DNA of 64,000 nt, from assembly GCF_003074135.1 (NCBI RefSeq), contig NZ_PPDK01000001.1, forward strand, positions 2,542,001-2,606,000, read 5' to 3'. A program made the translations under genes and the position numbers. Below, piece after piece: positions 46,658 to 63,801 of this stretch. The notes under the pieces were generated by a model. That model was not told the origin of the DNA, did not search any database, and saw nothing but the letters and a program-made list of their open reading frames with translations. Numbering within the stretch: position 1 is the first letter of the stretch; the number at the start of each line of letters is the position of its first letter. This DNA is from Euzebya tangerina (GTDB taxonomy: Bacteria; Actinomycetota; Nitriliruptoria; Euzebyales; Euzebyaceae).

Positions 46658-46753
46658 CGGTGAGGTGTCCACTGCGGGCGGTTACGTGGGCCGGCATGTC
46701 ACCTAAACGCCGAATCAGGCCGAAATCCCTGGCCAATCGGTGGTCTGGCGTGC

Positions 46754-46782
46754 TTGCACCGGCTCTACGGCCTACCTAGCCT
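46754..46782 (+). promoter_or_regulatory. Putative promoter of the CWB2 surface protein gene
   Basis: TTGCAC (46754-46759) and TAGCCT (46777-46782) are spaced by 17 bases. Transcription would begin near 46789, right at the start of the structured leader. An AT-rich GATAAT at 46923-46928 is a second candidate, which would give a very short leader. Confidence 0.4.
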
Positions 46783-46788
46783 CGTCCA

Positions 46789-46952
46789 TCAGGTCGGGAA
46801 GTTCGCAGTCGGCTACCCGTAAGGGTGCTGGCTTTGCGTACGTCCCTACTCCCGACCACCGCTCGCAGGACAACCACGTCCCTCGATCGGTCGGAACCGG
46901 GTCACACCCGGGTTCTAGTTCTGATAATCGAGGCTTAGGAGGCCTTCCACAC
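46789..46952 (+). promoter_or_regulatory. Structured 5' leader of the CWB2 surface protein mRNA
   Basis: The 321-base gap between aspS and the CWB2 gene holds no credible gene. It contains a nested structure: GGTCGGGA (46792-46799) with TCCCGACC (46850-46857), inside it CGCA/TGCG (46804-46807 with 46835-46838) and ACCC-GTAA-GGGT (46815-46826). Two further hairpins follow: GGAC/GTCC at 46868-46881, and GAACC-GGGT with ACCCGGGTTC at 46894-46915. A strong AGGAGG (46937-46942) ends the leader ten bases before the ATG. I match it to no known riboswitch class. Confidence 0.45.
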
Positions 46953-48200: not shown

Positions 48201-48238
48201 GTCAAGCCAGCTCGCAGCACCACGCTGCACCGCTAGTC

Positions 48239-48273
48239 ACGATGACCCGGCCACCTGGTGGCCGGGTCATCGT
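48239..48273 (+). terminator. Very strong terminator after the CWB2 surface protein gene
   Basis: Perfect 17-base arms (ACGATGACCCGGCCACC and its exact inverse) flank a single T, so the hairpin closes with a small loop of central bases. It starts 38 bases after the stop and is followed by TTC. It is symmetric and would work in either direction. Confidence 0.88.
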
Positions 48274-48292
48274 TCATGTCCGGAGCCACCAG

Positions 48293-48298
48293 TAGGGT
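48293..48298 (+). promoter_or_regulatory. Putative -10 box of the polysaccharide cluster (leaderless)
   Basis: TAGGGT ends seven bases before the GTG at 48306, with no Shine-Dalgarno. This would be the first promoter of the cluster. Confidence 0.4.
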
Positions 48299-48305
48299 TG
48301 CGCCC

Positions 48306-50138
48306 GTGTTCATCTCCAGAACTGCCGTCGCGACGACGCTGGCCACCGTCGTGGTCATCACCGCCCTGATCGTCATCCCCAGCGGACTGAACGCCTTCGA
48401 GCCGTCCAAGCTGATGAGCATCGTCGTCGGCGCCGCGGCCTGCGCCTGCGCGGTGTGGCTGACCGGCGGAGTCGATCGCAAACGGGTGGCCGAGGCGCGT
48501 GTCCCGCTCATCGTCGCGGCCGTCTTCCTCGTGCTGCTGCTGATCGCCGCCCTTGCCTCGCCCAGCCCGTTGAGCGCTCTGGTCGGGTCCCGGAGCCGGT
48601 GGGGTGGTGTGGCCCTGTACGCCGGGTGTGGGGTGCTGTTCGCCGTGGCCACGCAGCTCTCCCGCCTCCAGGTCCGACAGGTGCTGACGGCGGTGGCGCT
48701 GGCCGGTGGCGGCGTCGCCGCCTTCGGTGTCCTCCAGTCGATCGGCTTCAACCCGCTCGAGGGCATCGGTGATCAGACCGGCGTTCCCTCGACCTTCGGC
48801 AACATCAACTTCGCCGCCGGATTCGTCGGCGCGACGCTCGGCGCCATGCTGTGGTTGGTGCTCGACGACGACCTGCCGTTCAAGCGGCGCGTCCTGGGCG
48901 GGGTCCTGCTGGTGTTCGGGTTGGCCTACGTCTGGGTCAACGACTCGTTCCAGGGCATCCCGACCGGGGCCGCAGCCATGGCGATCGCTGCCGCCGGCTG
49001 GGCGTGGACACGTGGCGGGTCGATTCGGAAGGTCGGCATCCCGCTCATCGGTCTACTGTCGGCAGTCGGCGCCGCGGTGGTGGGTGCCGGGGTGGTGGGG
49101 AGCGGACCCCTCAGTGCCCTCAGCGCGCAGCGCGGCATCCTGATCCGTCGCTACTACTGGGACGCCGCGCTGGACATGATCGCCGACAACCCGCTGCTCG
49201 GTGTCGGGCCTGACCGATACGTCTACGCCTACCGCACCAGTCGCTCGTTCGAAGCCGCGTCCGATCTGGAGTTGCTGCTCGACAACGACGCGGCCCACAG
49301 CGTCTTCCTGCACTTCGGCACCGCGGGCGGCGTGCCGCTCATGCTGGCCTTCGTCGCGCTGGTGGTCACGGTCCTCATCATGGCGGGACGCGGGCTCCGG
49401 GCGGAGAACAGCGATCCGATGCTCATCTTCGGAGCTGCCGCCGTGGTGACCGGGTACATCGTCCAGGCCCTGGTCAGCATCGATGTGCCCGGGTTGGCCA
49501 TGCTCGGCTGGGTGTCACTCGGCCTGCTGGTCAGCGCGGGGCTGGTACGCCTGCCCGTCACGACCAAGGGCAAGAGGAAGCGGTCCAAGAAGCAGACTGC
49601 GGCAGCGCGCCGGCCGGATGGGGCAACGATCTCCTGGCAGCCGCTGCTCGGCTCGGCGGTGATCGTGACCGTGGTCTTCGTCATCGCGATCACCCCCGTG
49701 CGGGTGGAGAGCCAGACCTTGACGGCACTGCGTCAACCCGATTCGTTGCGCACGGTCGAGGGCACGTCGGCCGCCGCCGACCTCGGCTTCTGGGACCCCC
49801 GATACCGTGAGCGGAGCGCCCTGTCGATGATGATCGTCGATCGTGCGGAGGGGTTCGACATCGCGCGGGAGTTGGACGAGGAGAACCGCCTGACGGCATC
49901 CGTCGCCATCCGGGCGGCCGGTGTCGCAGCCGATTCGGGTGACGACGAGCTGGCCGTGGAGTGGTACAACCGCGCGCTCGAGGGCGAGCCGCTCCACCCC
50001 GAGCTGCGTGTCCAGGCCGCCCAGTTTTTCGCTCAGGCAGGGGAGACCGAGCGGGCGGAGGAGGTGGCGTCCGGGTTGCTCGCTGACGACCCTGACAACA
50101 CCGATGCTCAAGCGATCCTCGACTCGCTGCCCTCGTGA
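48306..50138 (+). CDS. O-antigen ligase/polymerase-like membrane protein with C-terminal TPR
   Basis: The 610-residue protein has about 12 hydrophobic segments, with a central outer loop before the Wzy_C-type block RRYYWDAALDMIADNPLLGVGPDRY and DNDAAHSVFLHFGTAGG. Those are hallmarks of the O-antigen ligase/polymerase superfamily. The last 130 residues hold tetratricopeptide-like repeats (ELAVEWYNRALEGEPLHPELR). It could polymerise or ligate lipid-linked glycans outside the membrane. The GTG start is chosen from a TAGGGT box seven bases upstream; longer frames run into the terminator hairpin. Its stop overlaps the next start (GTGA). Confidence 0.85.
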   Translation: MFISRTAVATTLATVVVITALIVIPSGLNAFEPSKLMSIVVGAAACACAVWLTGGVDRKRVAEARVPLIVAAVFLVLLLIAALASPSPLSALVGSRSRWGGVALYAGCGVLFAVATQLSRLQVRQVLTAVALAGGGVAAFGVLQSIGFNPLEGIGDQTGVPSTFGNINFAAGFVGATLGAMLWLVLDDDLPFKRRVLGGVLLVFGLAYVWVNDSFQGIPTGAAAMAIAAAGWAWTRGGSIRKVGIPLIGLLSAVGAAVVGAGVVGSGPLSALSAQRGILIRRYYWDAALDMIADNPLLGVGPDRYVYAYRTSRSFEAASDLELLLDNDAAHSVFLHFGTAGGVPLMLAFVALVVTVLIMAGRGLRAENSDPMLIFGAAAVVTGYIVQALVSIDVPGLAMLGWVSLGLLVSAGLVRLPVTTKGKRKRSKKQTAAARRPDGATISWQPLLGSAVIVTVVFVIAITPVRVESQTLTALRQPDSLRTVEGTSAAADLGFWDPRYRERSALSMMIVDRAEGFDIARELDEENRLTASVAIRAAGVAADSGDDELAVEWYNRALEGEPLHPELRVQAAQFFAQAGETERAEEVASGLLADDPDNTDAQAILDSLPS

Positions 50139-51262
50139 GGGTTGCCCACGTCATCGCCCGGCTGAACGTCGGGGGCCCGGCCGCGATCCTGCAGACGCTG
50201 GTGGAGGAGTCGGCCCGGGCCGGGAGTGACGTCGACCACGTCGTGCTTGCCGGCACCCCGGGGGAGGGGGAGGCCAGTTGGCACGACGTCCGGGGCGGGG
50301 AGTTGGACGTCCGCCTGATCTCAGGGCTTCGGCCGGACATCCGACCGCCTCAGGACATGCAGGCACTCGCGCACCTGGTCCGACACTTGCGATCCATCCG
50401 ACCCGACATCGTCCACACCCACACGGCCAAAGGCGGCCTGCTGGGTCGGCTGGCCGCGCGCCGCGTGCCCCTGGCCAAGACGGTTCACACGTTCCACGGC
50501 CATGTCCTGCACGGCTACTTCGGGCGGGGCTCGACCCGGGCCTACGTCGCACTCGAGCGGCGGCTGGCCCGACGGACGGACGGGTTGATCGGTGTGGGAG
50601 AGCGGGTGCGGTCGGAGCTTCTCGAGGCGGGCATCGGACAGGCCGACCGGTTCTGGTCGGTGGCGCCCGGGGTGACGGCACCGGACCTGGTCCGGCGAGA
50701 GGAGGCGCGTGAGCAGCTCGGCCTGGCCGCCGATGCGCCGGTCGTGTGCATGGTTGGGAGACTGACCCAGATCAAGCGCGTGGACCGAGCCCTGGCCGTA
50801 CTGCGGGAACTGCGGAGTCGGGATGTCCGGCCGGTGCTGCTGGTGGCCGGAGGCGGGGATCTGGAGGAGACGATGCGGGCCCAGGCGGCTGATCTGGGCG
50901 ACCAGGTGCGCTTTCTCGGCTGGGTGCGCGATGTCGGCACGGTCATGGGGGCGTCCGACCTGATCCTGCTGACCAGCGACAACGAGGGGATGCCAGTAGG
51001 GCTCATCGAGGCCGCACTGGTTGGGCTGCCAGCAGTCGCCACCGACGTGGGTGGTGTGTCGGAGGTCGTGTTGGACGGCAAGTCCGGCCGGGTCGTGCCC
51101 GCGACGGTGCAGGATCTGGCCGACGCCATCGAGGACCTGGTGATGGATCGGGGCCGGCTGTCGACGATGGCCGAGGTGGCCAAACGGCACGGGTCAGCCT
51201 GCTTCGGGGCCGATATCCTGATTCGTCGACACCACGAGATCTATCGCGAGGTACTTGCGTGA
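50135..51262 (+). CDS. Glycosyltransferase family 4
   Basis: A 375-residue GT-B enzyme. It has the N-terminal VAHVIARLNVGGPAAILQTL acceptor loop, DIVHTHTAKGGLLGRLAA, a His-rich HTFHGHVLHGYF segment (common in the WcaA/PelF-like group) and the donor-side CMVGRLTQIKRVDRAL and TSDNEGMPVGLIEAALVGLP with the conserved Glu. It presumably adds a sugar to the lipid-linked intermediate. It overlaps its neighbours on both sides by four bases. Confidence 0.88.
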   Translation: MRVAHVIARLNVGGPAAILQTLVEESARAGSDVDHVVLAGTPGEGEASWHDVRGGELDVRLISGLRPDIRPPQDMQALAHLVRHLRSIRPDIVHTHTAKGGLLGRLAARRVPLAKTVHTFHGHVLHGYFGRGSTRAYVALERRLARRTDGLIGVGERVRSELLEAGIGQADRFWSVAPGVTAPDLVRREEAREQLGLAADAPVVCMVGRLTQIKRVDRALAVLRELRSRDVRPVLLVAGGGDLEETMRAQAADLGDQVRFLGWVRDVGTVMGASDLILLTSDNEGMPVGLIEAALVGLPAVATDVGGVSEVVLDGKSGRVVPATVQDLADAIEDLVMDRGRLSTMAEVAKRHGSACFGADILIRRHHEIYREVLA

Positions 51263-52218: not shown

Positions 52219-52234
52219 GAGCGTGTCCTGACCA

Positions 52235-53407
52235 GTGTCTGACTGGTTGCTCTACGCGGGGATCTTCACGGTGGCGGTGGCCCTGAGCCTGCTCGCCGTC
52301 CCGCTGGCGATTCGCTTCGCGGCCTCCCGGCAGGTCGTCGACCGGCCCGGCGGGTACAAGCTGCAGGAGGCGGCCGTGCCCTACCTCGGGGGCGTCGCGA
52401 TCGTCTCGTCCTTCGTGGTGGTGGCGGTCGCGGCGATGGTCATCCGGCCACCGATCGGCGGCGATGTCCGCGATATCGCGATCATCCTCGGTCTGGCCGT
52501 GACGCTCTCGCTGATGGGGCTGATCGACGACCTGAAGGGGCTGGGTCCGGTCCTCCGGTTGGTCATCCAGGTCGGGGCGGCCGTCACGCTGCTGTTGGCC
52601 ACCACCACCGGCGTCCGCCTGTTCGACTCCGGCGGGGTGATCGATGCCGCCATCACCGTGGTCTGGATCGTCGGGATCACCAACGCCTTCAACCTGCTCG
52701 ACAACATGGACGGGCTCTCCGGCGGCATCACTGCGATCGCTTCCCTGGCGTTCTTCGTGATCGCCGCACTGTCCAACCAGTACTTGATCGCCAGCATGTC
52801 GATCGCGCTGGCCGGCTGCGCGCTGGGGTTCCTGGCGTACAACTGGCACCCGGCGAGGATCTACATGGGGGATGCTGGGTCGCTCTTCCTCGGCTTCATG
52901 CTGGCCGTTTTGGGATTGCGGCTGCGCTTCGCGGCACCGCGGGAGGTGACCGCGTTCGTGCCGGTCGTGGTTCTGGCGCTGCCGGTGCTCGACACCGCCC
53001 TGGTCACCGTGAGCCGGATGCTGCACGGCCGGAACCCGCTCGCGGGGGGCCGGGATCACATGTCGCACCGGCTCGTCTTCGTCGGCCTCTCCGTACCCAA
53101 CGCCGTGCGCACCATGTACCTGGTCGCGATCACGCTGGGCTGGACGGGCTTGATCATGAGCCGGGTTGACACCGTGACGGCGTTCCTCACCCTGGGGTTG
53201 GTCGCCGCTGGGATGGCGCTGTTCGGCTTCCTCCTCGGCCGCGTGCCGGTCTACTCCAACTCCAAGCGCGAGAAGGTCGTCGTGACCACCGTCGAGAAGG
53301 TGCCCGAGGACTACGAGCACGAAGAGGAGGATGTCGCAGCAGCGGCCGACGCGGAAGAGACGACGGCTGCCGCTGCTTACGTGACCACCGACCAGTCGGC
53401 GCAGTGA
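52235..53407 (+). CDS. WecA/MraY-type polyprenyl-phosphate sugar-1-phosphate transferase
   Basis: The 390-residue polytopic enzyme carries the family's catalytic motifs: GLIDDLKGLGP, NAFNLLDNMDGLSGG, IYMGDAGSLFLG and the cytoplasmic loop GGRDHMSHRL. It transfers GlcNAc-1-P (or a related sugar phosphate) to decaprenyl or undecaprenyl phosphate, starting a wall polymer such as arabinogalactan, teichoic-type or other lipid-linked glycan. A hydrophilic Glu/Ala/Thr-rich tail of about 55 residues follows the last helix. GTG start with TAGGAG upstream. Confidence 0.92.
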   Translation: MSDWLLYAGIFTVAVALSLLAVPLAIRFAASRQVVDRPGGYKLQEAAVPYLGGVAIVSSFVVVAVAAMVIRPPIGGDVRDIAIILGLAVTLSLMGLIDDLKGLGPVLRLVIQVGAAVTLLLATTTGVRLFDSGGVIDAAITVVWIVGITNAFNLLDNMDGLSGGITAIASLAFFVIAALSNQYLIASMSIALAGCALGFLAYNWHPARIYMGDAGSLFLGFMLAVLGLRLRFAAPREVTAFVPVVVLALPVLDTALVTVSRMLHGRNPLAGGRDHMSHRLVFVGLSVPNAVRTMYLVAITLGWTGLIMSRVDTVTAFLTLGLVAAGMALFGFLLGRVPVYSNSKREKVVVTTVEKVPEDYEHEEEDVAAAADAEETTAAAAYVTTDQSAQ

Positions 53408-53475
53408 CGACGACGACCCCTTCGCGCCCAGAGCTGCGCTGAGGCGAGCCCGGGCATCACACAGCTGACGATGGC

Positions 53476-54933
53476 GTGAGGAACCAGACCCGAGACGGGG
53501 AGCGGGGAGAGCACGCTGTTGCCCGGTGGTCCACCGCAGCCTCGTTGCTGCTCCTGGTGACCGTGCTGCTCAGCGTGGCAGTGCCGCTACGCACGTCGCG
53601 CGCCCCGACCAGTGACGGTCGGCAGTACGTCGCTGCGGCGGCCAACCTGGCGGTATCAGGAGTGTTCTCGACGCAGCTGCGGCCCGACGGCGGCAGTCCC
53701 ACTCCGAACGCCCGCCGCGAGCCCCTGTACCCAGCCATCCTCGCTCTTGGCATCGAGGTCATCGGGGCCGACAGCCCCGACCTGGCCTGCCTCCTGGATG
53801 CCAGCCGCTCGTGCCGAGACCACCTGCGGGCCTTGCGTCTGATCAACGTGATGCTGTTGGTGGCGCTGGGTCTCTCCACGCGGGTTCTGGCGCGACAGGT
53901 CGGCCTAGGACGATGGCTGGCCACGTGCCTCGGCATCGGGGTGGGTCTCTCCACGGTCTTCACGTCCGACGTCGACGAGTTCTTCAGCACCACCACGGCA
54001 GCAACGCTGCTGACGGCAGCTGCCGCACTGCTGCACCAGGTCGTCACGGACGGCCGGCGCAGAGCTCCGGTCCTCCTCGCTGGGGTGATGTTGGGGCTGC
54101 TGATGCTGACGCGGGCTTCGTTCATGGTCAGCGGGCTGGTGCTGGTGCCGGCGGCTTGGCTCGCATCACGCTGGGATTCGCGCGGCGCTGGTCGCAGGTG
54201 CATCGCTGTTCTGCTGATCAGCTGGATGGTTGCATCGCCCTGGATGGCCCGGAACGCAGCCCTCACCGGCAGTCCCGCCCTGACCAGCGGGGCATCACGG
54301 GTCCTGGCCGTCCGGGCCGAGGCCTCAACGATGTCGTGGGCCGAGTACCCCTGGGCCTTCGTGGTCTACACACCCGAACTCGGCGAACGCATCGTTCGCG
54401 CCGCGCCCGAGGCCCCGTGGCGTCGGTGGGACCGTCGGCAGGAACCCAGCTTCTACGGGCTGGCCCTCGGCCTCGATCCCGGTGGGGAGGTGCAGCAGCG
54501 TGCGGGCGCCGACGTGGACCGACTCGGCTCGGCCGCAGCGGCCGTGATCGCTGACAACCCAGTTGAGTTCGCAGCCCTGACGCTCCCGTACGCCTGGCGA
54601 GGGCTGTTCGGCGAGGCGGGTCGACAGCCGTTGCAGAACCAGGGGACCGAAATGGCCGACATCCTGGCCCGCTGGCTCGCACCGCTCGTCGGCGTGGCGC
54701 TGATCGCGCTGGTGCCCGCGTCGATCATCACCATCACCCGGGTCCTGAGGCACCGGGACGCCGCGGTCATGATGATGCTGTCGTTGGTCGCCGGATCCTA
54801 CGTCTTCCACGCTGCGACGACCCACTTCATCCGACGCTACAGCCACCCATTCGTGCCCGTGCTGGTGGTCACCGTCGTGTGGGTGCTCAGGCGGGACTAC
54901 CGCACGGCCGCGGCAGACGACGTGCCATCATGA
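53476..54933 (+). CDS. GT-C type membrane glycosyltransferase (GT39/ArnT-like)
   Basis: The 485-residue protein has about ten membrane helices. An early outer loop with SDGRQYVAAAANLAV holds the acidic residue expected for a GT-C active site, and ARREPLYPAILAL follows. GT-C enzymes use polyprenyl-phosphate sugars outside the membrane. The fold is inferred from helix layout; the donor is unknown. The GTG start has no good ribosome site; the stop overlaps the next ATG (ATGA), tying it to the GT2 gene. Confidence 0.72.
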   Translation: MRNQTRDGERGEHAVARWSTAASLLLLVTVLLSVAVPLRTSRAPTSDGRQYVAAAANLAVSGVFSTQLRPDGGSPTPNARREPLYPAILALGIEVIGADSPDLACLLDASRSCRDHLRALRLINVMLLVALGLSTRVLARQVGLGRWLATCLGIGVGLSTVFTSDVDEFFSTTTAATLLTAAAALLHQVVTDGRRRAPVLLAGVMLGLLMLTRASFMVSGLVLVPAAWLASRWDSRGAGRRCIAVLLISWMVASPWMARNAALTGSPALTSGASRVLAVRAEASTMSWAEYPWAFVVYTPELGERIVRAAPEAPWRRWDRRQEPSFYGLALGLDPGGEVQQRAGADVDRLGSAAAAVIADNPVEFAALTLPYAWRGLFGEAGRQPLQNQGTEMADILARWLAPLVGVALIALVPASIITITRVLRHRDAAVMMMLSLVAGSYVFHAATTHFIRRYSHPFVPVLVVTVVWVLRRDYRTAAADDVPS

Positions 54934-56450
54934 CCGGGATGCCGAGCCAGCCGCTTCACCTGTGGAACCGCCGCCCAACGCCGGCTGCAGGATCGGGCTG
55001 GACGCCAACGGTCAGTGTCGTGATCCCGCACTACCGTTCTGTCGAGCTGTTGCGCAACACGGTGGCTGGACTGGCCCAGCAGGACTACCCACTGGGACGG
55101 ATGCAGGTCATCGTCGTCGACGACGGCTCGCCGGTGCCACCACGACCGCCGGACCTCGCCGATGCCGACCTGTCCGTCGACCTGATCCATCAGCGCCGCG
55201 ACGGCTTCGGTGCCGGTCGGGCGCGCAACCGTGGTGCCGACGCTGCAGAGGGCGACGTGCTGGTGTTCCTCGATGCCGACGTGATTCCCTCGCCCACCTT
55301 CCTCACGCAACACGTGGCGCTGCACGAGTCAGTCGACTACGCGGTTGCATTCGGTGAGCGGACCCACGTCGACATCGCCCGCGTGGACGCCGAGACGATG
55401 CGCCAACGCCTGCGCGATGGTCACAGCGCTGACGACCTGCTCGCGGACCTGCCCACGCGCACGGTGGCCTGGCGCGAAGCGTTCCTGCGCGAAACGGCAC
55501 ATCTGACGACGGACCGGGCGCGGGGGTGGCGACTGTGCAACACCGGGAACCTGTCCATGCGCCGGTCCTTCTTCACCGACGTGGGCGGGTTCGATGAGCG
55601 GTTCTGGGGGTGGGGTGGTGAGGACATCGAGTGGGCCTACCGCGCGCTCCAGGCTGGCGCGCTCCTGACACATCACCCCGAGGCCCATGGCTGGCACCAG
55701 GGCCTCGAGGGCGCCACGACAGCCTCGGAGCGCGCGTCCCAGGCGGCGCAGGCGCGATTCCTCGCGTCGTTGATCGCCGACTCCGAGATCAGAGCACCGT
55801 TCGGTCCGAGGTTGTGGGAAGTACCTCGCGTCGCCGTCGAGATCGCGGCGGCCGCTGCGGACGACGGTGCTGTCGAGATGCTCGTGGACGGACTGCTCGC
55901 CGAGCTCCGGGACGTCATCATCGCGCTGGACGATGGGGGGAGGAGCCTCCGACTGCTCCGGGGGTACGCCTCCGAGCCACGGGTTCTCCTCCGTCCCGAA
56001 TCGGTCCCGGCGAGACCCGAAGCAGACCCCCGTCCGGAGCAGTCGTGGTGGCCAGGCCTGCCGTCGGCGGCGGCAGCGCCAACCCAGGTCATCATCGACC
56101 AGCCCGACCTGATGAGCGCGCACGACATCGGACGGGCGCTCCAGCGATTGGACACCGACGATCCACGTCCCGTCGGTGTCCGATTCCGAGCGGCTGGAGG
56201 TGCGGTCGCGGCATCGGCATGGAGTACGCAGATGCTCAGGCGGGCGACACGATGCGGTGAAGACCTGCTGGCGGGCCAGATCCCGGACGGATGGCCGATC
56301 ATCACCGAGACACCGCAGGGGCCGCCGCGAGCCTCCATCCGATCAGCCCGGCGTCGGCAGTTGCCAGCCGAGGTCCGGCAGCTGTGGTGGCGCCTGCCCA
56401 GCCCGGTGCGACACCAGCTTGACCGGTTGCGCTCCGGAGGACCGCGCTGA
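54930..56450 (+). CDS. Glycosyltransferase family 2 with galactosyltransferase-type C-domain
   Basis: The 506-residue GT-A protein has VSVVIPHYRSVELLRNTV, the nucleotide Asp pair in VIVVDDGSP, the DxD in VFLDADVIP and the acceptor block CNTGNLSMRRSFFTDVGGFDE plus WGWGGEDIEW. The last of these is the Glyco_transf_7C motif of galactosyl/GalNAc-transferase-like enzymes. The last 200 residues are poorly conserved. It overlaps both neighbours (ATGA before, TGATG after), so it belongs to the same translational unit as the sulfotransferase. Confidence 0.87.
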   Translation: MTGMPSQPLHLWNRRPTPAAGSGWTPTVSVVIPHYRSVELLRNTVAGLAQQDYPLGRMQVIVVDDGSPVPPRPPDLADADLSVDLIHQRRDGFGAGRARNRGADAAEGDVLVFLDADVIPSPTFLTQHVALHESVDYAVAFGERTHVDIARVDAETMRQRLRDGHSADDLLADLPTRTVAWREAFLRETAHLTTDRARGWRLCNTGNLSMRRSFFTDVGGFDERFWGWGGEDIEWAYRALQAGALLTHHPEAHGWHQGLEGATTASERASQAAQARFLASLIADSEIRAPFGPRLWEVPRVAVEIAAAAADDGAVEMLVDGLLAELRDVIIALDDGGRSLRLLRGYASEPRVLLRPESVPARPEADPRPEQSWWPGLPSAAAAPTQVIIDQPDLMSAHDIGRALQRLDTDDPRPVGVRFRAAGGAVAASAWSTQMLRRATRCGEDLLAGQIPDGWPIITETPQGPPRASIRSARRRQLPAEVRQLWWRLPSPVRHQLDRLRSGGPR

Positions 56451-57415
56451 TGCTCGATCGTGTCACGCCGGCGGTGCGCGCCGCTCTGGGGCGTCTCAGC
56501 CATCTTCCCGTCGTCGGAACGGTCATCCTCCGAGGCCGGGCCCGTCTCGAGGACAGGGAGCAGCAGGCTGTCGCGCGGCGACCCATGACGCGGGTGGTCG
56601 ACGACCTCCGGGATCGCACCGGGAGTCCCGAGCCTGACGGCCCCGCGCCGGTGTTCGTCCTCGCCGCAGGGTGGCGGTCGGGCTCGACCCTCGTCCAGCG
56701 CCTGGTCATGTCCTCCGGTGACGTCTTCCTGTGGGGTGAGCCGTTCGACCGGTCATCACCGATCTCCACGTTGACCGCGCAGGCCCGGCCGATGCGTCGG
56801 GACTGGCCCCCCCGGGAGTGGTTGATCGATCCCGACTCGCCTCCGGCTGATCGTCTCGTGAACGACTGGATCGCCACGCTGAGTCCTCCGCTCGAGCGGC
56901 TGGCGGACGCGCACCGCGCCTACCTGACGACGCTGCTCCGGCCCCCCGCAACCTTCACGGGGTCGCGGTGGGGAGCCAAGGAAGTCCGGCTGTCCGGGGA
57001 GGATGCCGTGTGGCTGAGTCACCTGTACCCCGCGGCCTCGTTCGTCTTCGTGGTGCGAAACCCGTGGGACGCCTATGCCTCATACAAGGGCATCCGACGC
57101 TGGTATCACCGCTGGCCCGATGCCATGGTCTCGAGCGTCGCCCAGTACGCGACGCTGTGGAATGACTTGGCGGCGTCGTTCCTGGCGGTGTCCGAGGAGG
57201 TGAACGGGACGCTTCTGCGGCACGAGGATCTCAGCGACCCCGACCGGCTCGACGAACTCGACGCGTTCCTCGGTGCACCGGTGGATCGAGCGGTCCTGGG
57301 TACCCGCCGCCCCGGCCCCGACGTATGGCGGCCTCGTCGGCTCTCCCGCTGGGACAGCTGGCAGATCGACCACATCGCGGGTGAGACAGCAACGCGACTG
57401 GGCTACGGCGACTGA
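56450..57415 (+). CDS. Sulfotransferase (PAPS-dependent), P-loop fold
   Basis: The 321-residue protein contains the 5'-phosphosulfate loop GWRSGST (74-80) and the 3'-phosphate motif FVFVVRNPWDAYASYK (Arg203 to Ser211). This is the Sulfotransfer_1/3 pattern. It would move sulfate from PAPS onto a hydroxyl of the glycan or its lipid. A basic N-terminal segment of about 45 residues precedes the core. No PAPS synthesis gene is in the window. The ATG shares its A with the GT2 stop codon. Confidence 0.85.
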   Translation: MLDRVTPAVRAALGRLSHLPVVGTVILRGRARLEDREQQAVARRPMTRVVDDLRDRTGSPEPDGPAPVFVLAAGWRSGSTLVQRLVMSSGDVFLWGEPFDRSSPISTLTAQARPMRRDWPPREWLIDPDSPPADRLVNDWIATLSPPLERLADAHRAYLTTLLRPPATFTGSRWGAKEVRLSGEDAVWLSHLYPAASFVFVVRNPWDAYASYKGIRRWYHRWPDAMVSSVAQYATLWNDLAASFLAVSEEVNGTLLRHEDLSDPDRLDELDAFLGAPVDRAVLGTRRPGPDVWRPRRLSRWDSWQIDHIAGETATRLGYGD

Positions 57416-57466
57416 CGGCTGGTACGGCTGGACGACCACGCCACCGGGAACCGGCAGCAGCACCTG

Positions 57467-57472
57467 TACTCT
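57467..57472 (+). promoter_or_regulatory. Possible -10 box of glf
   Basis: TACTCT lies 68 bases before the glf ATG, within a 125-base gap. It would give a leader of about 60 bases ending in the GAGG ribosome site. Confidence 0.3.
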
Positions 57473-57540
57473 GGATGGGTCAGTCGGCCGAGTCGGGAGG
57501 GCCGACGTCCTTCTGTCCCGCTACATCTCCCAGAGGCGAC

Positions 57541-58686
57541 ATGTACTTCGGAATCGTTGGCGCCGGCTTCTCCGGTGCGGTCATCGGGCGTGAGCTGGCA
57601 CAGGCTGGACACGACGTCGAGATCTTCGACGCGCGCGACCACATCGCCGGCAACTGCCACACCTCCCGTGACGACGAGACCGGTGTCATGGTGCACCGCT
57701 ACGGCCCACACATCTTCCACACCGACATCGAGCGGGTGTGGACCTACATCTCGTCCTTCGCGGACATGCAGCCGTACCGCCACAGCGTCCGGACGACGGT
57801 GGGCGATCGCGTCTTCAGCCTCCCCATCAACCTCCACACGATCAACCAGGTCTTCGGAGCGGCAATGAGTCCCTCGGAGGCCAAGGCGTTCGTCGCCGAA
57901 CAGGCGGAGGCTGACATCGAGGAGCCACAGAACTTCGAGGAGCAGGCCCTCAAGTTCGTGGGCCGCGAGCTCTACGAGATGTTCTTCTACGGCTACACCC
58001 GGAAGCAGTGGGGTGTGGAGCCGACGAAGCTTCCCGCGTCGATCCTGAAGCGCCTGCCGCTCCGGTTCAACTACGACGACACCTACTTCGGCCACCCCCA
58101 CATCGCGATTCCTCGGGGTGGGTACACGGAGGTCGTCTCGCGGATCCTCGATCATCCCAACATCACCGTCCATCTGTCCTCGCCAGTAACCCGGCCGGAC
58201 CTGGTTGAGTTCGACCACGTCGTCTGGTCCGGCCCGTTGGACGCCTGGTTCGGCTTCGCCGAGGGCCGACTGGGCTACCGGACGCTCGACTTCGTCGCCG
58301 AACGGCACGCCGGTGACTATCAGGGCATCCAGGTGATGAACTACGGTGAGTACGAGGTGCCCTACACCCGGATCACGGAGCACAAGCACTTCTCGCCGTG
58401 GGAGGAGCACGATGACACGATCGTGTTCCGCGAGTTCAGTCGCGCGGCTGAGCCGGAGGACATCCCGTACTACCCGATCAGGCTGACCGAGGACCAGGGG
58501 CTGCTCGACACCTACGTCAGAATGGCGCAACAGGAGCCTGGCGTGACCTTCGTGGGACGACTCGGCACGTACCGCTACCTCGACATGGACCGCACCATCG
58601 ATCAGGCCCTGACGGCGGCCGAGGGGATCACGGCCGCCATCGGCCGTGGCGAGCCGATCCCGTCGTTCCTGGTCGATCCGACATGA
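57541..58686 (+). CDS. glf: UDP-galactopyranose mutase
   Basis: Glf (381 residues) is an FAD enzyme that converts UDP-galactopyranose to UDP-galactofuranose. The dinucleotide motif GAGFSG is at 8-13. The family marks HRYGPHIFHTD, FFYGYTRKQWG, IPRGGYTEV and the C-terminal GRLGTYRYLDMD are present. Its presence predicts galactofuranose in the polymer. ATG follows GAGG; a frame opening 22 codons earlier lacks family similarity. Confidence 0.96.
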   Translation: MYFGIVGAGFSGAVIGRELAQAGHDVEIFDARDHIAGNCHTSRDDETGVMVHRYGPHIFHTDIERVWTYISSFADMQPYRHSVRTTVGDRVFSLPINLHTINQVFGAAMSPSEAKAFVAEQAEADIEEPQNFEEQALKFVGRELYEMFFYGYTRKQWGVEPTKLPASILKRLPLRFNYDDTYFGHPHIAIPRGGYTEVVSRILDHPNITVHLSSPVTRPDLVEFDHVVWSGPLDAWFGFAEGRLGYRTLDFVAERHAGDYQGIQVMNYGEYEVPYTRITEHKHFSPWEEHDDTIVFREFSRAAEPEDIPYYPIRLTEDQGLLDTYVRMAQQEPGVTFVGRLGTYRYLDMDRTIDQALTAAEGITAAIGRGEPIPSFLVDPT

Positions 58687-58720
58687 CCCCGCAGCCACAC
58701 TCCCCGGAAAGGGGCCATCG

Positions 58721-60649
58721 ATGAGTTCTTCGATCTTTTGGCTGGGCGCCCACAAGACCGCGACCACCTTCTTGCAGCACAGCCTGGACCACTCCCAGGA
58801 CGCACTGCAGGAGTACGGGGTCAAGTACGTGGAGTTGGAGGAGTTCCGGCAGCGCTATGCGCGACCCCTGCTCAACTTCGATGCGGACTCGAAGCCTGAT
58901 GCCACCGTCTTCGACGGACCAGAGCCCATCAATCTCATCTTCGACGAGAACATCCCCGGGTACGTCCAGCACGCGCTGTCGACCAAGGGCTTCTACCCAG
59001 AGATGATCGATCGAGTCGACACGGTGGCCCAGCATCTCGGGATCTCGGTCGACGAGGTCATCTTCGGCGTCAGACGGTATGACACCTTCCTACCCTCGCT
59101 GTACTGCGAGACGCTCAAGTCGACACCGTTCAAGACCTTCGACGAGTACCTGCAGTCGTCGTTCAGGAACTCATCGCGGTTCTCCCGTCTGAACTGGTAC
59201 AACCTGCTGCGGCAGTTCGTCGACGCCTATCCGGGTCGCCGCGTCCGCGTGTACTTCTACGAGGAGTTGCGCGGGCGTGAAGCGGAACTGCTCGAGTCGG
59301 TGCTCCGCATTCCGTCGGGAGACTTCACGCTGCACGAGGGAACGGAACGTCCGGGGTTCTCCCAGAAGGCGGTCGAAGAGCTCCACCGGATCGCGGGTCA
59401 GCGTCAGGTCGAGCGCAAGGACGTTCGCCGGGCGGTCAAGCGCCATCCGAAGGGAAGGGGCAACCCGTCCTTCGATCCATGGGACGAGGACCAGCGCCAC
59501 GCTCTACTGCTGGCCCACGAGAGTGACCGAGCCCGAATCCTCAGCGATGGTGATCTCGAGGTCATCGAGCTCGATGATGCTGGTCCTGCGCCGCTCACCC
59601 GTCGGAGTTCGGGTGCCCAGACGGTTCACGCAGCCCGACCGTCGCCTCGCTCCTCTGGCGCCGCAGAGACGGGACGGGACCACCTCGACAGCCCAGACCT
59701 CTCCGTGGTCATCCCTGCTCACCAGGCAGTCGGCACGATCCAACCGCTGGTCGAGACCCTCCTCGCGGTGCCCTCTCTCAGCGTCCAGATCGTCCTCGTC
59801 GACGACCACTCCGACGACGGGACGGGCGAGCTTGTACGTCGCCTGTCCTCTGATGATCGGATCGTGGCCTTCCACCACGCCGACAATCGCGGGGCGGGCG
59901 TGGCGCGCAACACCGGTTTCCGGGCTGCGACGGGGCGGTACACGCTGTTCTTCGACGCGGACGACGTCATCCACGTCGACGCGTTGGTCGAAGCCGTCGA
60001 GGCGCTGGACGAGACTGGTGCGGATGTCGCGGTCATGCCGTATCGCTATGAGCGCGGCACGTCCAGCGATCGGGAGATGAACACCTTCGATCGTGAGCTC
60101 TGGACCGGCTACGTCGGAAGCGCAGCCCGGCGAGTGACGAGCCTTGACGAAGCGCCTCGCCTGCTCGGTCTGTCCCACTACCCGTGGAACAAGATCCTGC
60201 GGACCGACGTGTTCCGGACGGCAGGCTTGCGCTTCGGCTCGACACCGGTCCACAACGACATCCTCGGCCACTGGTACAGCCTGCTGTTCGCCCAGAAGAT
60301 CGTGCTGGTCAACCGGATCATCTGCACCCACGTGGTGAGCAGCGGCGGGCCGAACCTGACCAACCGGCACAACGACGAGCGCTTGACGCTGTTCGACGCG
60401 CTCGATGAGACCTACGACCTCCTCGAGCGCCATCCCGCCTGGCGAAATCGGTACTCGCATCACTACTGGGCCGTTGCCCTCCGCATCGCCGGATGGGCCG
60501 ACGCTCGGATCTCGGGGGCCCACCGCGAGGAGTTCAAGCTTCGGCTGCAAGCCCATCTGCTGCGCGCCAACCTGTCTGACTACACGCGGATCCGCATGAA
60601 GCGGGACCCCGCGCTGGCTGATGCGATCCTCAGCCGAACCCTATCCTGA
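58721..60649 (+). CDS. Sulfotransferase-like domain fused to a GT2 glycosyltransferase
   Basis: The 642-residue protein combines two enzymes. Residues about 5-285 are sulfotransferase-like: the PAPS loop is GAHKTATTFLQ (9-19) and a 3'-phosphate-like VRRYDTFLPSLY occurs near 118-128. A Ser/Arg-rich linker covers about 286-325. Residues 326 onward are a GT2 domain with LSVVIPAHQAVG, VLVDDHSDDGTGE, NRGAGVARNTGF and the DxD FFDADD (411-415). A C-terminal helical part completes it. It could glycosylate and sulfate the same chain. ATG follows GGAAAGG. Confidence 0.85.
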   Translation: MSSSIFWLGAHKTATTFLQHSLDHSQDALQEYGVKYVELEEFRQRYARPLLNFDADSKPDATVFDGPEPINLIFDENIPGYVQHALSTKGFYPEMIDRVDTVAQHLGISVDEVIFGVRRYDTFLPSLYCETLKSTPFKTFDEYLQSSFRNSSRFSRLNWYNLLRQFVDAYPGRRVRVYFYEELRGREAELLESVLRIPSGDFTLHEGTERPGFSQKAVEELHRIAGQRQVERKDVRRAVKRHPKGRGNPSFDPWDEDQRHALLLAHESDRARILSDGDLEVIELDDAGPAPLTRRSSGAQTVHAARPSPRSSGAAETGRDHLDSPDLSVVIPAHQAVGTIQPLVETLLAVPSLSVQIVLVDDHSDDGTGELVRRLSSDDRIVAFHHADNRGAGVARNTGFRAATGRYTLFFDADDVIHVDALVEAVEALDETGADVAVMPYRYERGTSSDREMNTFDRELWTGYVGSAARRVTSLDEAPRLLGLSHYPWNKILRTDVFRTAGLRFGSTPVHNDILGHWYSLLFAQKIVLVNRIICTHVVSSGGPNLTNRHNDERLTLFDALDETYDLLERHPAWRNRYSHHYWAVALRIAGWADARISGAHREEFKLRLQAHLLRANLSDYTRIRMKRDPALADAILSRTLS

Positions 60650-60658
60650 AAGAGATCA

Positions 60659-61945
60659 GTGGCCCGTCTCTCCGTCATCGTCACCAGTTACAACATCGAG
60701 GCGTATCTCGAGCAGTGCTTGGAGTCCATCCTCGCGCAGACCCTCGAGGATCTGGAGATCATCGTCGTCGATGACGGATCGAGCGATGACTCGCCCGCAA
60801 TCATCCGGCGCTTCGCTGATCGCGACGATCGAGTTGTACCGCTGCTGCTCGAGGAGAACAGCGTGGGTGGTGTGGCGACGGCTGCCAACGCGGGACTCGA
60901 CATCGCCACCGCTCCCTACGTTGGCTTCGCCGACGGCGACGACGTCTACGACGTGCGGATGTTCGAGCAGCTGCTGCAGGCCGCGGAGGCCGAGGACGCG
61001 GACCTCGCCATGTGCCAGTACGTGCTCCTCGATGACAGCGACGGGTCGATTGCCCAGCCCGCAGACTCCCGCCGTTGGGATGATCTGGCCAGGGGGACCT
61101 ACGCGCTGGACGTCGACCGGAGCAAGCAGATCCTCCGCTTCATCGCCGTTCCCTGGCGCAAGATCTACCGACGGAGCCTGCTGGAAGAGAACTCGATCCG
61201 GTTCCCCGTGGGCGACTACTTCTACGAGGACAACCCCTTTCACTGGTTCAGTGTCCTCTCAGCGAACTCCATCGCCGTGGTGCCAGAGGTGCTGTGCCAG
61301 CACCGGGTCGCCCGGGTCGGTCAGACGATGGGAACCGCTGACGAGCGCCTGTTCAAGATCTTCCTCCACCACGCCACCATCTTGGAATGGCTGCAGCAAC
61401 GCGGTCTGGCCGAGGAGTACCAGACGACGTTGTTGGCCTGGGCGATGTCGCAGATGGAGTGGATCTCCAGGCGGACCCCGGAAGAACTCCACCAGCGGCT
61501 GTACGACGTCCTGCGAGCCGTCTTCGCAGCCCACGACGATGCCACGGCCGAGCACGCGTTGGTGGAGGGATCCAAGGGCGCCTACGCACGTCGTCTCACC
61601 TCGGCGCTGATGGCAGACGACTACGCGGCCTTCAAGGCCGCGCTCGGTCGTGATGATGCCAACGCGTCTCTGGTCGACAAGGCACTGCACCACGTGCGAA
61701 GTGCCGGGGTCGTCGAGACCTCACGGATCGCGGGCCGGTTTGCGTACTACCACGGGCGCCGGCGTGGGCGTCGAGTGATGAACGCTGCACGTCGGCTGCT
61801 CGCCGGGGTCCGTCGCGGCTCCAGCGCGGGAGCGGTCACCCGGGACGACCTCATGTTCGGCCTCATGATCGTCGAACAGCGGCTGGGATCCATCGAGGAG
61901 GAACTGGCTCGTCAGCGTCGAGACACCTCGGGTGAGGGCACGTGA
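60659..61945 (+). CDS. Glycosyltransferase family 2
   Basis: The 428-residue GT-A enzyme has LSVIVTSYNIEAYLEQCLES, IIVVDDGSSDDSP and the DxD-like GFADGDDVYD. The acceptor-side VPWRKIYRRSLL and YEDNPFHW are typical of the WcaA/EpsJ-like group, and it resembles the GT2 half of the fusion protein before it. The C-terminal 150 residues are helical and end in a coiled-coil-like basic region. GTG start; nine bases separate it from the fusion gene. Confidence 0.88.
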   Translation: MARLSVIVTSYNIEAYLEQCLESILAQTLEDLEIIVVDDGSSDDSPAIIRRFADRDDRVVPLLLEENSVGGVATAANAGLDIATAPYVGFADGDDVYDVRMFEQLLQAAEAEDADLAMCQYVLLDDSDGSIAQPADSRRWDDLARGTYALDVDRSKQILRFIAVPWRKIYRRSLLEENSIRFPVGDYFYEDNPFHWFSVLSANSIAVVPEVLCQHRVARVGQTMGTADERLFKIFLHHATILEWLQQRGLAEEYQTTLLAWAMSQMEWISRRTPEELHQRLYDVLRAVFAAHDDATAEHALVEGSKGAYARRLTSALMADDYAAFKAALGRDDANASLVDKALHHVRSAGVVETSRIAGRFAYYHGRRRGRRVMNAARRLLAGVRRGSSAGAVTRDDLMFGLMIVEQRLGSIEEELARQRRDTSGEGT

Positions 61946-62918
61946 GGTGGACCGCGGCAATCGGGCGACCCGCTCCCGAGCGGATGAGGTCGTCGTGAGC
62001 GCCTCGACGGAGTCGGCGCCCGCCCGACTGGAGCCAGCCGTGCCTGAGCACCTGGTGCCGTCCGCCGATCCGGTGACGGCATCGGATGACGCAGAGCTGC
62101 GCCGACTCGGTGAGCGACTGTCGTTGCGGCGCTACCTCGCCGAGGTCTGGTCGTTCAGGGAGTTCGCAGCGATCGGACCCGTGGCACAGATGCGCGCCGA
62201 GAGTTCCGAGACACGGCTCGGGACGGCATGGAATCTCATCAACCCGCTGCTGCTCGTCGCGGTGTACTACCTGATCTTCCAGGTGATCCTCGGCATCGAG
62301 GAACGGCGTGGCGTGAGCAACTACCTGCCGTTCCTCACGGTCGGCATCCTCGCCTACAACTTCCTGCGGCGCAGCACGCAGAGCGGCTCGAAGTCCATCA
62401 TCAAGGGTCGCAAGATGATGCAGTCGATCTACTTCCCTCGGGTCATCCTGCCGATGAGCGCAACGGTGACGCAACTGCTGTCCTACTTCTGGTCGATCGG
62501 TGCGATGGTCATCCTGCTGCCCATCATGGGGGTCCGCCCAAGTCGAATGCTCCTGCTGTTCCCGGTGGCCCTGATCCTGCAGCTGGTGATGAACTTCGGA
62601 CTCTCGTTCCTCGCGGCTCGGCTCACCTTTCACTTCAGGGACTTCGAGAACCTGCTCCCGTTCCTGCTGCGCGTGGGAACCTACATCTCCGGTGTGCTCA
62701 TCCCGATCAATCCCGACATCATCAGCAACGATCTGCTGCGCGGCGCACTCCGCGTGCTGCCGACATCGGCGATCGTGGACGTCGTGCGCCAGACGCTGCT
62801 CGACGACTACGCCTTCGACCCCGTTTCGTGGATCCTCGCCGGCGTCTGGTCGGTGGTGCTGATGACCGTCGGCTTCTGGTGGTTCACGCGCGCTGAGAAC
62901 GAGTACGGCCGTGTCTGA
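61932..62918 (+). CDS. ABC-2 type polysaccharide exporter, permease (Wzm/TagG-like)
   Basis: The permease (328 residues from the GTG at 61932) has six membrane helices with the ABC-2 pattern LGTAWNLINPLLLVAVYYLIF and later FLLRVGTYISGVLIP. It forms the membrane channel for the ATPase that follows. The first 60 residues are hydrophilic and poorly supported: in-frame GTGs at 61947 or 61995 are also possible, and the start given overlaps the GT2 stop by 14 bases. The stop overlaps the ATPase start. Confidence 0.9.
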   Translation: MRAREVDRGNRATRSRADEVVVSASTESAPARLEPAVPEHLVPSADPVTASDDAELRRLGERLSLRRYLAEVWSFREFAAIGPVAQMRAESSETRLGTAWNLINPLLLVAVYYLIFQVILGIEERRGVSNYLPFLTVGILAYNFLRRSTQSGSKSIIKGRKMMQSIYFPRVILPMSATVTQLLSYFWSIGAMVILLPIMGVRPSRMLLLFPVALILQLVMNFGLSFLAARLTFHFRDFENLLPFLLRVGTYISGVLIPINPDIISNDLLRGALRVLPTSAIVDVVRQTLLDDYAFDPVSWILAGVWSVVLMTVGFWWFTRAENEYGRV

Positions 62919-63801
62919 ACCCACCGCCGCCGGTCCATTGGACGTGGACGCGCACCCAGTCGGTCCCCGCGACCTCAACGGCGATGCCGATCGCAGCCAC
63001 GGTCAGCGGCCGGCCGTCTCCGTCGAGCACGTCGACGTCCGGTACCAGGTCTATGCGGAGAAGCGTCGAAGTCTGCGGCGCCTGTTGGCCGGCGACGCGC
63101 GCCAACGGCAGCAGCGCGAGATCCACGCGGTGCGAGACGTCTCATTCATGGTGCAGTCGGGCGAGGCCATCGGCGTGCTCGGTCACAACGGCTCCGGCAA
63201 GTCGACACTCCTGCGTGCGATCGGCGGGCTGATGCCCGTCTCCGGCGGCGCGGTTCGGGTCCGGTCCTTGCCCGTGCTGCTCGGGGTGAAGGCCGCGCTC
63301 GAGGGCGATCTGTCAGCCCGGGCGAACGTGATCCTCGGGGGATTGGCTCTGCAGATACCGCGCAAGGTGCTGCAGGAGAACATGGACGACATCATCGAGT
63401 TCGCTGGGGTCGAGGAGCACGCGGACATTCCGCTGCGTGCCTTCTCTTCTGGAATGAAGGCCCGCTTGCAGTTCGCGATCTCCACCGTGGTCTCACCCGA
63501 GATACTGCTCATCGACGAGGCACTCTCGGTTGGGGATGCCGAGTTCAAGGCCAAGTCGGACGACCGAATCCGCGAGATGATGGCGGACGCGAGCACGGTC
63601 TTCCTGGTGTCGCACTCGCCGAAGAACATCACCGACATCTGTAGTCGTGCCATCTGGTTGGACCAGGGTCGGCTGATCGCCGACGGTCCGGCGGAAGACG
63701 TCGTCGAGGCGTACCAGGACCACGTGGAGGAACTCCGCAGACGCCGCCGCCAGCGCAAGCGGGCCCAGCAGAACAGCGCCCGCACACCGGTGTCAGGCTG
63801 A
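62911..63801 (+). CDS. ABC-2 type polysaccharide exporter, ATPase (Wzt/TagH-like)
   Basis: The 296-residue ATPase has Walker A GHNGSGKST (91-99), an altered signature FSSGMKAR (178-185), Walker B EILLIDEAL (Glu203) and the switch His235. The FSSGM form is typical of the polysaccharide-exporter subfamily. It lacks the extra C-terminal carbohydrate-binding domain of O9a-type Wzt, so substrate recognition lies elsewhere; the last 25 residues are very Arg-rich. The GTG start overlaps the permease. Confidence 0.93.
   Translation: MSEPTAAGPLDVDAHPVGPRDLNGDADRSHGQRPAVSVEHVDVRYQVYAEKRRSLRRLLAGDARQRQQREIHAVRDVSFMVQSGEAIGVLGHNGSGKSTLLRAIGGLMPVSGGAVRVRSLPVLLGVKAALEGDLSARANVILGGLALQIPRKVLQENMDDIIEFAGVEEHADIPLRAFSSGMKARLQFAISTVVSPEILLIDEALSVGDAEFKAKSDDRIREMMADASTVFLVSHSPKNITDICSRAIWLDQGRLIADGPAEDVVEAYQDHVEELRRRRRQRKRAQQNSARTPVSG

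What the first reader, a model, noticed from the sequence alone, without database searches (positions are those of the whole stretch)
56450..60649. Two sulfotransferase domains, one fused to a GT2, predict a sulfated glycan
A stand-alone sulfotransferase (56450) and a sulfotransferase-GT2 fusion (58721) lie on either side of UDP-galactopyranose mutase. Both keep a PAPS loop. Fusion of sugar addition and sulfation in one polypeptide suggests stepwise building of a sulfated repeat. Sulfated wall or capsular polysaccharides are rare in actinobacteria and would fit a marine or saline habitat.
Basis: partly seen in the sequence, partly recalled or inferred. Interest (0 to 1): 0.62.

Follow-up and report, generated by a model that had tools for sequence, protein, structure and literature searches.

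The report
Sulfated galactofuranose glycan locus in Euzebya
A bacterium of the genus Euzebya (a marine actinobacterial group) carries a surface-sugar gene cluster with at least four enzymes predicted to add sulfate groups, two of them fused to sugar-adding enzymes, which suggests that it makes a sulfated polysaccharide of a kind long thought to be almost absent from bacteria other than cyanobacteria.

Summary
At 56450-57415 lies a Sulfotransfer_3 protein, at 57475-58686 a Klebsiella-like UDP-galactopyranose mutase, and at 58721-60649 one continuous 642-codon frame with an N-terminal sulfotransferase (ST) and a C-terminal GT2. Two more STs lie 0.9-5.4 kb beyond the window; one is also fused to a putative glycosyltransferase. 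The ST half of the window fusion has no Pfam match. Profile searches tie it to solved sulfotransferases (3rnl, E 1e-7) and to Sulfotransfer_3 (93%). It keeps both PAPS motifs.

The genome has CysD-CysNC for PAPS and a CysH of the APS-reductase type, so PAPS is probably made for sulfation. The fusion's GT2, the next GT2 and UGM form a module also found without any fused ST in Flexivirga. So the ST is a lineage-specific addition to a galactofuranose module. No other ST-GT fusion was seen in 66 genomes of the class. The locus (WecA-like primer, Wzm/Wzt-like exporter) sits in a variable glycan region whose E. pacifica counterpart also carries an ST.

Best reading: an ABC-exported, Galf-containing, sulfated surface polysaccharide. 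The sugars, the linkages and sulfation itself are unproven.

The parts
46740..48200 (+). CWB2-domain protein (secreted cell-wall binding); first gene of the locus after aspS
   Evidence: Pfam CW_binding_2 62.5 bits; 44-46% identical counterpart after aspS in G002 and G003
48258..50138 (+). Wzy_C (O-antigen ligase-like) membrane protein with C-terminal TPR
   Evidence: Pfam 34.2 bits; about 10 TM-like segments; counterpart in G002 and G003
50135..51262 (+). GT4-type glycosyltransferase
   Evidence: Glycos_transf_1 111.7 bits
51259..52218 (+). NAD-dependent sugar-nucleotide epimerase/dehydratase; conserved flank of the locus
   Evidence: Pfam; 81-82% identical in G003 and G002
52235..53407 (+). 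WecA/TagO-like polyprenyl-phosphate sugar-1-phosphate transferase (priming enzyme)
   Evidence: PF00953 127 bits; WecA model 101.8 bits, below its cut-off; 64% identical in G002 and G003
53476..54933 (+). Membrane protein, no family; perhaps a GT-C-type glycosyltransferase (motif read by eye)
   Evidence: No Pfam match; 5 TM-like segments by a simple hydropathy scan; GT-C is inference
54879..56450 (+). GT2 glycosyltransferase with Glyco_transf_7C
   Evidence: PF00535 81 bits, PF02709 43.5 bits
56450..57415 (+). Stand-alone sulfotransferase (ST1); PAPS motifs GWRSGST and RNPWDAYAS
   Evidence: PF13469 37.3 bits, above cut-off; start overlaps the previous stop, RBS GGAGG
57475..58686 (+). UDP-galactopyranose mutase (source of UDP-Galf)
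   Evidence: GLF 234 bits; solved UGM 2bi7 E=3e-153; TIGR00031 300.8 bits against 303.75
58721..59620 (+). Sulfotransferase half of the fusion (residues 1-300); PAPS motifs GAHKTATT (58745) and VRRYDTFLPS (59069)
   Evidence: AlphaFold model pTM 0.75; best fold matches are PAPS sulfotransferases but weak
59621..59695 (+). Disordered, low-complexity linker between the two domains
   Evidence: pLDDT under 50 at residues 286-321; frame continuous
59696..60649 (+). GT2 half of the fusion (GT2-A), TarP/TarS-like fold
   Evidence: PF00535 99.8 bits; 51-62% identical to stand-alone GT2s in Flexivirga and G035; fold matches TarP/TarS E about 1e-13
60659..61945 (+). Partner glycosyltransferase GT2-B
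   Evidence: PF00535 117 bits; 52-58% identical partner next to GT2-A in Flexivirga and G035
61932..62918 (+). ABC-2 permease, Wzm/TagG-like
   Evidence: PF01061; galactan Wzm model 30.6 bits, below equivalog cut-off
62911..63801 (+). ABC ATPase, Wzt/TagH-like, without an added carbohydrate-binding domain
   Evidence: PF00005; TagH and galactan Wzt models 167-177 bits, below equivalog cut-offs; 296 aa
63793..64000 (-). 3' end of a GT4 glycosyltransferase (391 aa) that runs on outside the window; next along, also outside, are ST P0005 (C1:2606880-2607665), the ST-GT protein P0004 (C1:2608136-2611420) and galE (C1:2612219-2613295)

Best explanation
This is a biosynthesis locus for a surface polysaccharide that contains galactofuranose and is sulfated in the cytosol before export. 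A WecA-like enzyme loads the first sugar on a polyprenyl carrier. GalE and UGM supply UDP-Galp and UDP-Galf. GT2-A, GT2-B and the other glycosyltransferases build the chain. Four PAPS-dependent sulfotransferases (ST1, the ST half of the fusion, P0005, the ST part of P0004) sulfate sugars of the growing chain. The Wzm/Wzt-like ABC transporter exports it, and the Wzy_C-like or CWB2 proteins may anchor it. In the fusion the ST domain is tethered to GT2-A so that it acts on the same glycan, most simply on or next to the residue GT2-A adds. PAPS comes from CysD-CysNC. Shown: gene content, motifs, homology, conserved GT2-A/GT2-B/UGM module, fusion, PAPS genes, synteny. Inferred: enzyme activities, identity of the sugars, that the STs act on this glycan, order of steps.
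For: ST homology and motifs; CysD+CysNC operon beside a putative anion permease, and a second APS kinase; the only other PAPS_reduct protein carries CCQIRK...CQPC, the motif of APS reductases (motif meaning from established knowledge), so PAPS is not needed for assimilation; GT2-A+GT2-B+UGM adjacent in two Flexivirga species and GT2-A+GT2-B adjacent in G035, all without an ST fused to GT2-A; UGM very close to solved UGM 2bi7; GalE above its curated cut-off downstream; exporter and primer families; tight same-strand gene run with overlaps; 8 of 12 ST genes in the genome lie within 10 kb of a GT2 gene against 1.0 expected; the homologous locus after aspS has STs in E. pacifica (G003) and G002.
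Against: No chemistry exists. The GT2s match no solved galactofuranosyltransferase above threshold, so Galf transfer rests on the UGM link. Exporter and primer models score below their equivalog cut-offs. A Wzy_C-like gene sits beside an ABC exporter, so the pathway type is not clean. The best fold matches of the ST half are sulfotransferases, but TM-scores are 0.30-0.40 and P-loop kinases follow closely. P0005 and P0004 are on the opposite strand and may serve another product.
Confidence: 0.7

Rival explanations
1. The sulfotransferases act on a small glycolipid or lipid-linked oligosaccharide (as mycobacterial Stf0 or rhizobial NodH do), not on a polysaccharide; the product is a sulfated surface glycolipid.
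For: The known mycobacterial and rhizobial STs on sugars make lipid-linked or lipo-oligosaccharide products (PMC8205485 discussion); Stf0 is among the fold matches.
Against: The locus has the priming, chain-building and ABC-export set of a polymer and no acyltransferase or polyketide synthase was found among the genes scanned.
Confidence: 0.14
2. Sulfation by the fused domain caps the chain: the ST-GT2 protein adds the last sugar and a terminal sulfate that stops growth, as methyl or phosphate caps do in some ABC-dependent O antigens.
For: ABC-dependent systems often set chain length by terminal modification (established knowledge); the fused enzyme pairs a sugar addition with a modification.
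Against: The Wzt-like ATPase is only 296 aa and lacks room for the extra carbohydrate-binding domain that reads such caps; there are four STs, more than a cap needs.
Confidence: 0.08
3. The ST half of the fusion is catalytically dead and only scaffolds the GT2; sulfation, if any, is done by the stand-alone STs.
For: It is divergent (no Pfam hit; 18-23% identical to relatives).
Against: The 5'-phosphosulfate loop (GAHKTATT) and the 3'-phosphate motif (R...S, VRRYDTFLPS) are kept as in the stand-alone relatives.
Confidence: 0.1
4. The fusion is an assembly or sequencing artefact that joins two adjacent genes.
For: Only one genome holds it; relatives carry GT2-A alone.
Against: Continuous 642-codon frame with high GC3 on both sides and a linker-like joint without an evident start codon and RBS for GT2-A; a second ST-GT frame built on a different ST family lies about 5.5 kb downstream.
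Confidence: 0.04

Closest known systems
Synechan (xss) cluster of Synechocystis 6803 and related cyanobacterial sulfated EPS clusters (PMC8205485)
   Same: Polysaccharide locus with two PAPS sulfotransferases of different subfamilies among glycosyltransferases; ABC-type clusters with STs are reported in other cyanobacteria.
   Different: xss is Wzx/Wzy-type with separate ST and GT genes; here ABC export, UGM/Galf, and two ST-GT fusions in an actinobacterium.
wps-1 cluster of Actinoplanes missouriensis (PMC13390465, 2026)
   Same: Actinobacterial locus with two STs predicted to make a sulfated polysaccharide; its GT2 WpsA clusters with galactofuranosyltransferases.
   Different: Wzx/Wzy-type; no ST-GT fusion or UGM mentioned in the passages read; sulfation also unverified there.
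Klebsiella D-galactan (O1/O2) ABC-dependent O-antigen system
   Same: WecA priming, UGM/Galf, GT set, Wzm/Wzt export; the closest solved relative of the UGM is 2bi7 (Klebsiella enzyme, from general knowledge).
   Different: No sulfotransferases; Gram-negative LPS; the GT2s here are not shown to be homologous to WbbM/WbbO.
Putative sulfated GAG-like cluster of Pontiella sulfatireligans (PMC7356697)
   Same: Marine non-cyanobacterial bacterium with an ST in a GT2/GT4 cluster; sulfated exopolymer was detected chemically.
   Different: One ST in the cluster, unfused; different phylum and glycan.
TarP/TarS wall teichoic acid glycosyltransferases
   Same: Best structural matches of the GT2 half.
   Different: About 15-19% identity, other substrates, no ST domain.

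Membership tests
PAPS-dependent sulfotransferases | 5'-phosphosulfate-binding P-loop (K/R-x-G/A-[ST]-[ST]) | tested here: met
   ST1 GWRSGST; fusion GAHKTATT; P0005 GGQKCGTT; P0004 GYPRSGHS
PAPS-dependent sulfotransferases | 3'-phosphate-binding R-x7-S after a beta strand | tested here: met
   ST1 RNPWDAYAS, fusion RRYDTFLPS, P0005 RDPVERYLS; P0004 has T for S
PAPS-dependent sulfotransferases | Sulfotransferase fold with PAPS pocket | tested here: inconclusive
   Fusion ST half: 6 of the top 8 fold matches are PAPS sulfotransferases and a seventh is the SULT-like retinol dehydratase, but E is about 1e-3 and TM at most 0.40; profile hit 3rnl E=1.1e-7
PAPS-dependent sulfotransferases | Sulfate transfer activity | not testable with these tools
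   Needs biochemistry
Sulfated-polysaccharide clusters (synechan type) | STs among polymer-building GTs and an export system, with PAPS supply in the genome | tested here: met
Sulfated-polysaccharide clusters (synechan type) | Sulfate in the isolated polymer | not testable with these tools
   Needs chemical analysis
Sulfated-polysaccharide clusters (synechan type) | Wzx/Wzy polymerisation (xss itself) | tested here: not met
   ABC exporter found and no flippase family hit in the genes scanned; a Wzy_C-like ligase/polymerase is present
Klebsiella-type ABC-dependent galactan | UGM, WecA-like primer, Wzm/Wzt pair | tested here: met
   at superfamily level, equivalog cut-offs not reached
Klebsiella-type ABC-dependent galactan | Galactosyl/galactofuranosyl transferases of the WbbM/WbbO kind | tested here: inconclusive
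   GT2-A and GT2-B hit generic GT2 structures only; not compared directly with WbbM/WbbO

The most novel reading that the evidence does not exclude
The ST-GT2 protein is a two-headed enzyme that adds a sugar of a galactofuranose polymer and sulfates it (or its neighbour) while still bound, and together with the second ST-GT fusion makes a sulfated galactofuranan in a marine actinobacterium, a polymer for which no biosynthetic enzyme turned up in the papers searched here.
Probability: 0.3. Interest if true: 0.65.

Novelty: new variant of a known kind. Interest (0 to 1): 0.46.

Why it matters
Two of the papers read (PMC8205485, PMC13390465) describe sulfated bacterial polysaccharides as confined to cyanobacteria, with one actinomycete cluster predicted in 2026. 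This locus adds a marine actinobacterial genus with four sulfotransferases in one glycan cluster, a likely dedicated PAPS supply, and enzymes that join sugar transfer and sulfation in one chain. It makes directly testable whether actinobacteria sulfate polysaccharides, and it offers a possible bacterial tool for position-controlled glycan sulfation. The relatives that carry the same GT2/UGM module without the fused ST give a built-in control.

Tried and rejected
Pfam, PDB sequence search and NCBIfam gave nothing for the ST half of P0003; only alignments and profiles worked. Fold search with the whole fusion returned only glycosyltransferases among the 50 matches shown, so the ST half was modelled alone. 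A search for other ST-GT fusions in the class (large Sulfotransfer_3 frames) found tandem STs and one methyltransferase-TPR-ST frame but no ST-GT fusion; this covers 66 genomes, only frames that match Sulfotransfer_3, and not the rest of the bacterial world. Full-text searches for published ST-GT fusions found none. The C-terminal part of P0004 had no convincing sequence match to solved structures. The scan of genome contigs with P0003 gave GT2-half matches only. G001 does not show the locus downstream of its aspS.
Full report
WHAT IS THERE. The window is C1:2542001-2606000 of a 4.78 Mb genome. A genome of the same GTDB genus (G003) is Euzebya pacifica by 100% identity of a 6 kb stretch of its second replicon to NZ_CP031166.1, so the source is a Euzebya species (Actinomycetota, Nitriliruptoria). 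The genes at the stated coordinates are real and in the stated order: ST1 56450-57415, UGM 57475-58686, fusion 58721-60649. ST1 starts in a TGATG overlap with GGAGG ahead of it, and the fusion starts at ATG 58721 behind GAAAGGGG. Thirteen genes from 46740 to 63801 run on one strand with short gaps or overlaps.

THE FUSION. The 642-codon frame is continuous with high GC3 on both sides of a linker. The linker has low predicted confidence (residues 286-321). The C-terminal half is GT2 (99.8 bits) and its model resembles TarP and TarS. The N-terminal half has no Pfam match even at E=10. It is nevertheless homologous to a stand-alone protein (E=2.7e-6) of a family that is sparse in the phylum (11 of 396 genomes with a three-row profile). 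An eight-row profile of that family hits the solved sulfotransferase 3rnl at 1.1e-7 and, weakly, many SULTs. Profile-profile comparison with Sulfotransfer_3 proteins gives 93% and 2.6e-7, with both PAPS motifs in register. A model of the ST half alone (pTM 0.75) finds mostly PAPS sulfotransferases at the top (SULT2A8, SULT4A1, Teg14, Stf0, StaL). E-values are only about 1e-3 and TM-scores 0.30-0.40, so the fold evidence is supportive and not conclusive.

Sulfotransfer_3 finds 14 matches in this genome, about 12 genes. Two lie just past the window end: P0005 (Sulfotransfer_1 51.4 bits) and P0004, a 1094-aa protein with an N-terminal Sulfotransfer_3 domain, a likely Glyco_tranf_2_4 domain (22.5 bits, below the curated cut-off of 27.5) and an unassigned C-terminal part. 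Homologues of P0004 elsewhere in the phylum cover only the ST part, so it too looks like a local fusion. In the genome as a whole, 8 of 12 STs lie within 10 kb of a GT2 gene against 1.0 expected by random placement. STs in one cluster are not independent, so this is a rough measure. The three other genomes of the genus have 3-4 Sulfotransfer_3 matches each.

PAPS SUPPLY. CysD and a CysN-APS kinase fusion (CysNC) lie together on contig C4 near a CitMHS/TrkA_C permease; a second APS kinase joined to a PUA-like domain lies on C3. The genome's other PAPS_reduct protein carries CCQIRK and CQPC, the cysteine pattern of iron-sulfur APS reductases (established knowledge). Sulfate assimilation would then not need PAPS, which leaves sulfation as the likely use of it.

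WHICH GLYCAN. The UGM is very close to solved UGM 2bi7 (E=3e-153). GalE follows downstream, above its curated cut-off. In Flexivirga meconopsidis and F. caeni the counterparts of GT2-A and GT2-B (51-56%) stand directly beside a UGM (62-63%), and in G035 the pair stands without UGM in the stretch read. None of these GT2-A proteins has an ST domain, and the Flexivirga genes scanned around them include no ST. The simplest history is that an ST domain was joined to the GT2 of an existing galactofuranose module. The WecA-like primer and the Wzm/Wzt (TagGH-like) pair point to a polyprenyl-linked polymer exported by an ABC transporter. These models stay below their equivalog cut-offs, so the class is supported and the exact pathway is not.

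THE REGION. After aspS, the order cwb2-wzyC-gt4-epimerase is kept in E. pacifica (G003) and G002; the wecA-like gene follows directly in G003 and lies at the far end beside an ABC pair in G002. The stretch between or beyond differs and carries other STs in both (G003: one, 81.5 bits; G002: one of 102 bits, a further Sulfotransfer_3 match, and one of the fusion's own ST family). So a variable surface-glycan locus with STs recurs in the genus. G001 does not show it at this place.

HOW IT PROBABLY WORKS. Lipid carrier primed by the WecA-like enzyme; chain built by GT2-A, GT2-B and the other GTs with UDP-Galf from UGM; sulfate added in the cytosol from PAPS by up to four STs; export by the ABC pair. 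The tether in the fusion would keep the ST on the chain that GT2-A is extending. The gene content is shown; the chemistry and the coupling are inferred.

COMPARISON. Synechan (PMC8205485) is the characterised precedent for two STs in a bacterial polysaccharide locus; that paper states that ABC-type clusters with STs exist in cyanobacteria and that no sulfated polysaccharide had been reported from other bacteria. Pontiella (PMC7356697) has chemically detected sulfated exopolymers and one ST in a GT cluster. Actinoplanes wps-1 (PMC13390465) is an actinobacterial cluster with two STs, sulfation unverified. Thus the kind is known; the new features are the ST-GT2 fusion, a second ST-GT fusion in the same locus, the galactofuranose module and the genus. 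No ST-GT fusion was found in the 66 genomes of the class, among phylum relatives of the fusion's ST, or in the full-text search.

VERDICT. Observation confirmed and extended; interpretation partly supported; new variant of a known kind; moderate interest.

Noticed in passing
L029:2136-5420 (C1:2608136-2611420, minus strand): 1094-aa protein with a sulfotransferase domain, a probable GT2_4 domain and a 400-aa C-terminal part of unknown family (perhaps a beta-propeller, judged by eye only).
   Followed up: partly
L001:1390-2793 (C3, minus strand): Second APS kinase fused to an ATP-sulfurylase-like PUA_2 domain, with no ATP-sulfurylase catalytic domain found by Pfam.
   Followed up: partly
L062:10061-13557 and L063:9935-13401: Two Flexivirga species share the GT2-A/GT2-B/UGM module at 51-63% identity although they are distant actinobacteria: possible horizontal transfer.
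   Followed up: partly
L071:3511-6447 (G002) and L079:2110-4428 (G020): Other multi-domain proteins in related genomes: a GT2-GT4 double glycosyltransferase frame, and a frame with two sulfotransferase domains in tandem.
   Followed up: no
G000 contig C4, about 36-42.5 kb: Three further sulfotransferase genes within about 6.5 kb, about 30 kb from the CysD-CysNC genes and without GT2 genes on that contig.
   Followed up: no
window 53476-54933: Multi-spanning membrane protein without a Pfam family between the primer gene and a GT2; the REPLYP stretch is reminiscent of GT-C glycosyltransferases.
   Followed up: no
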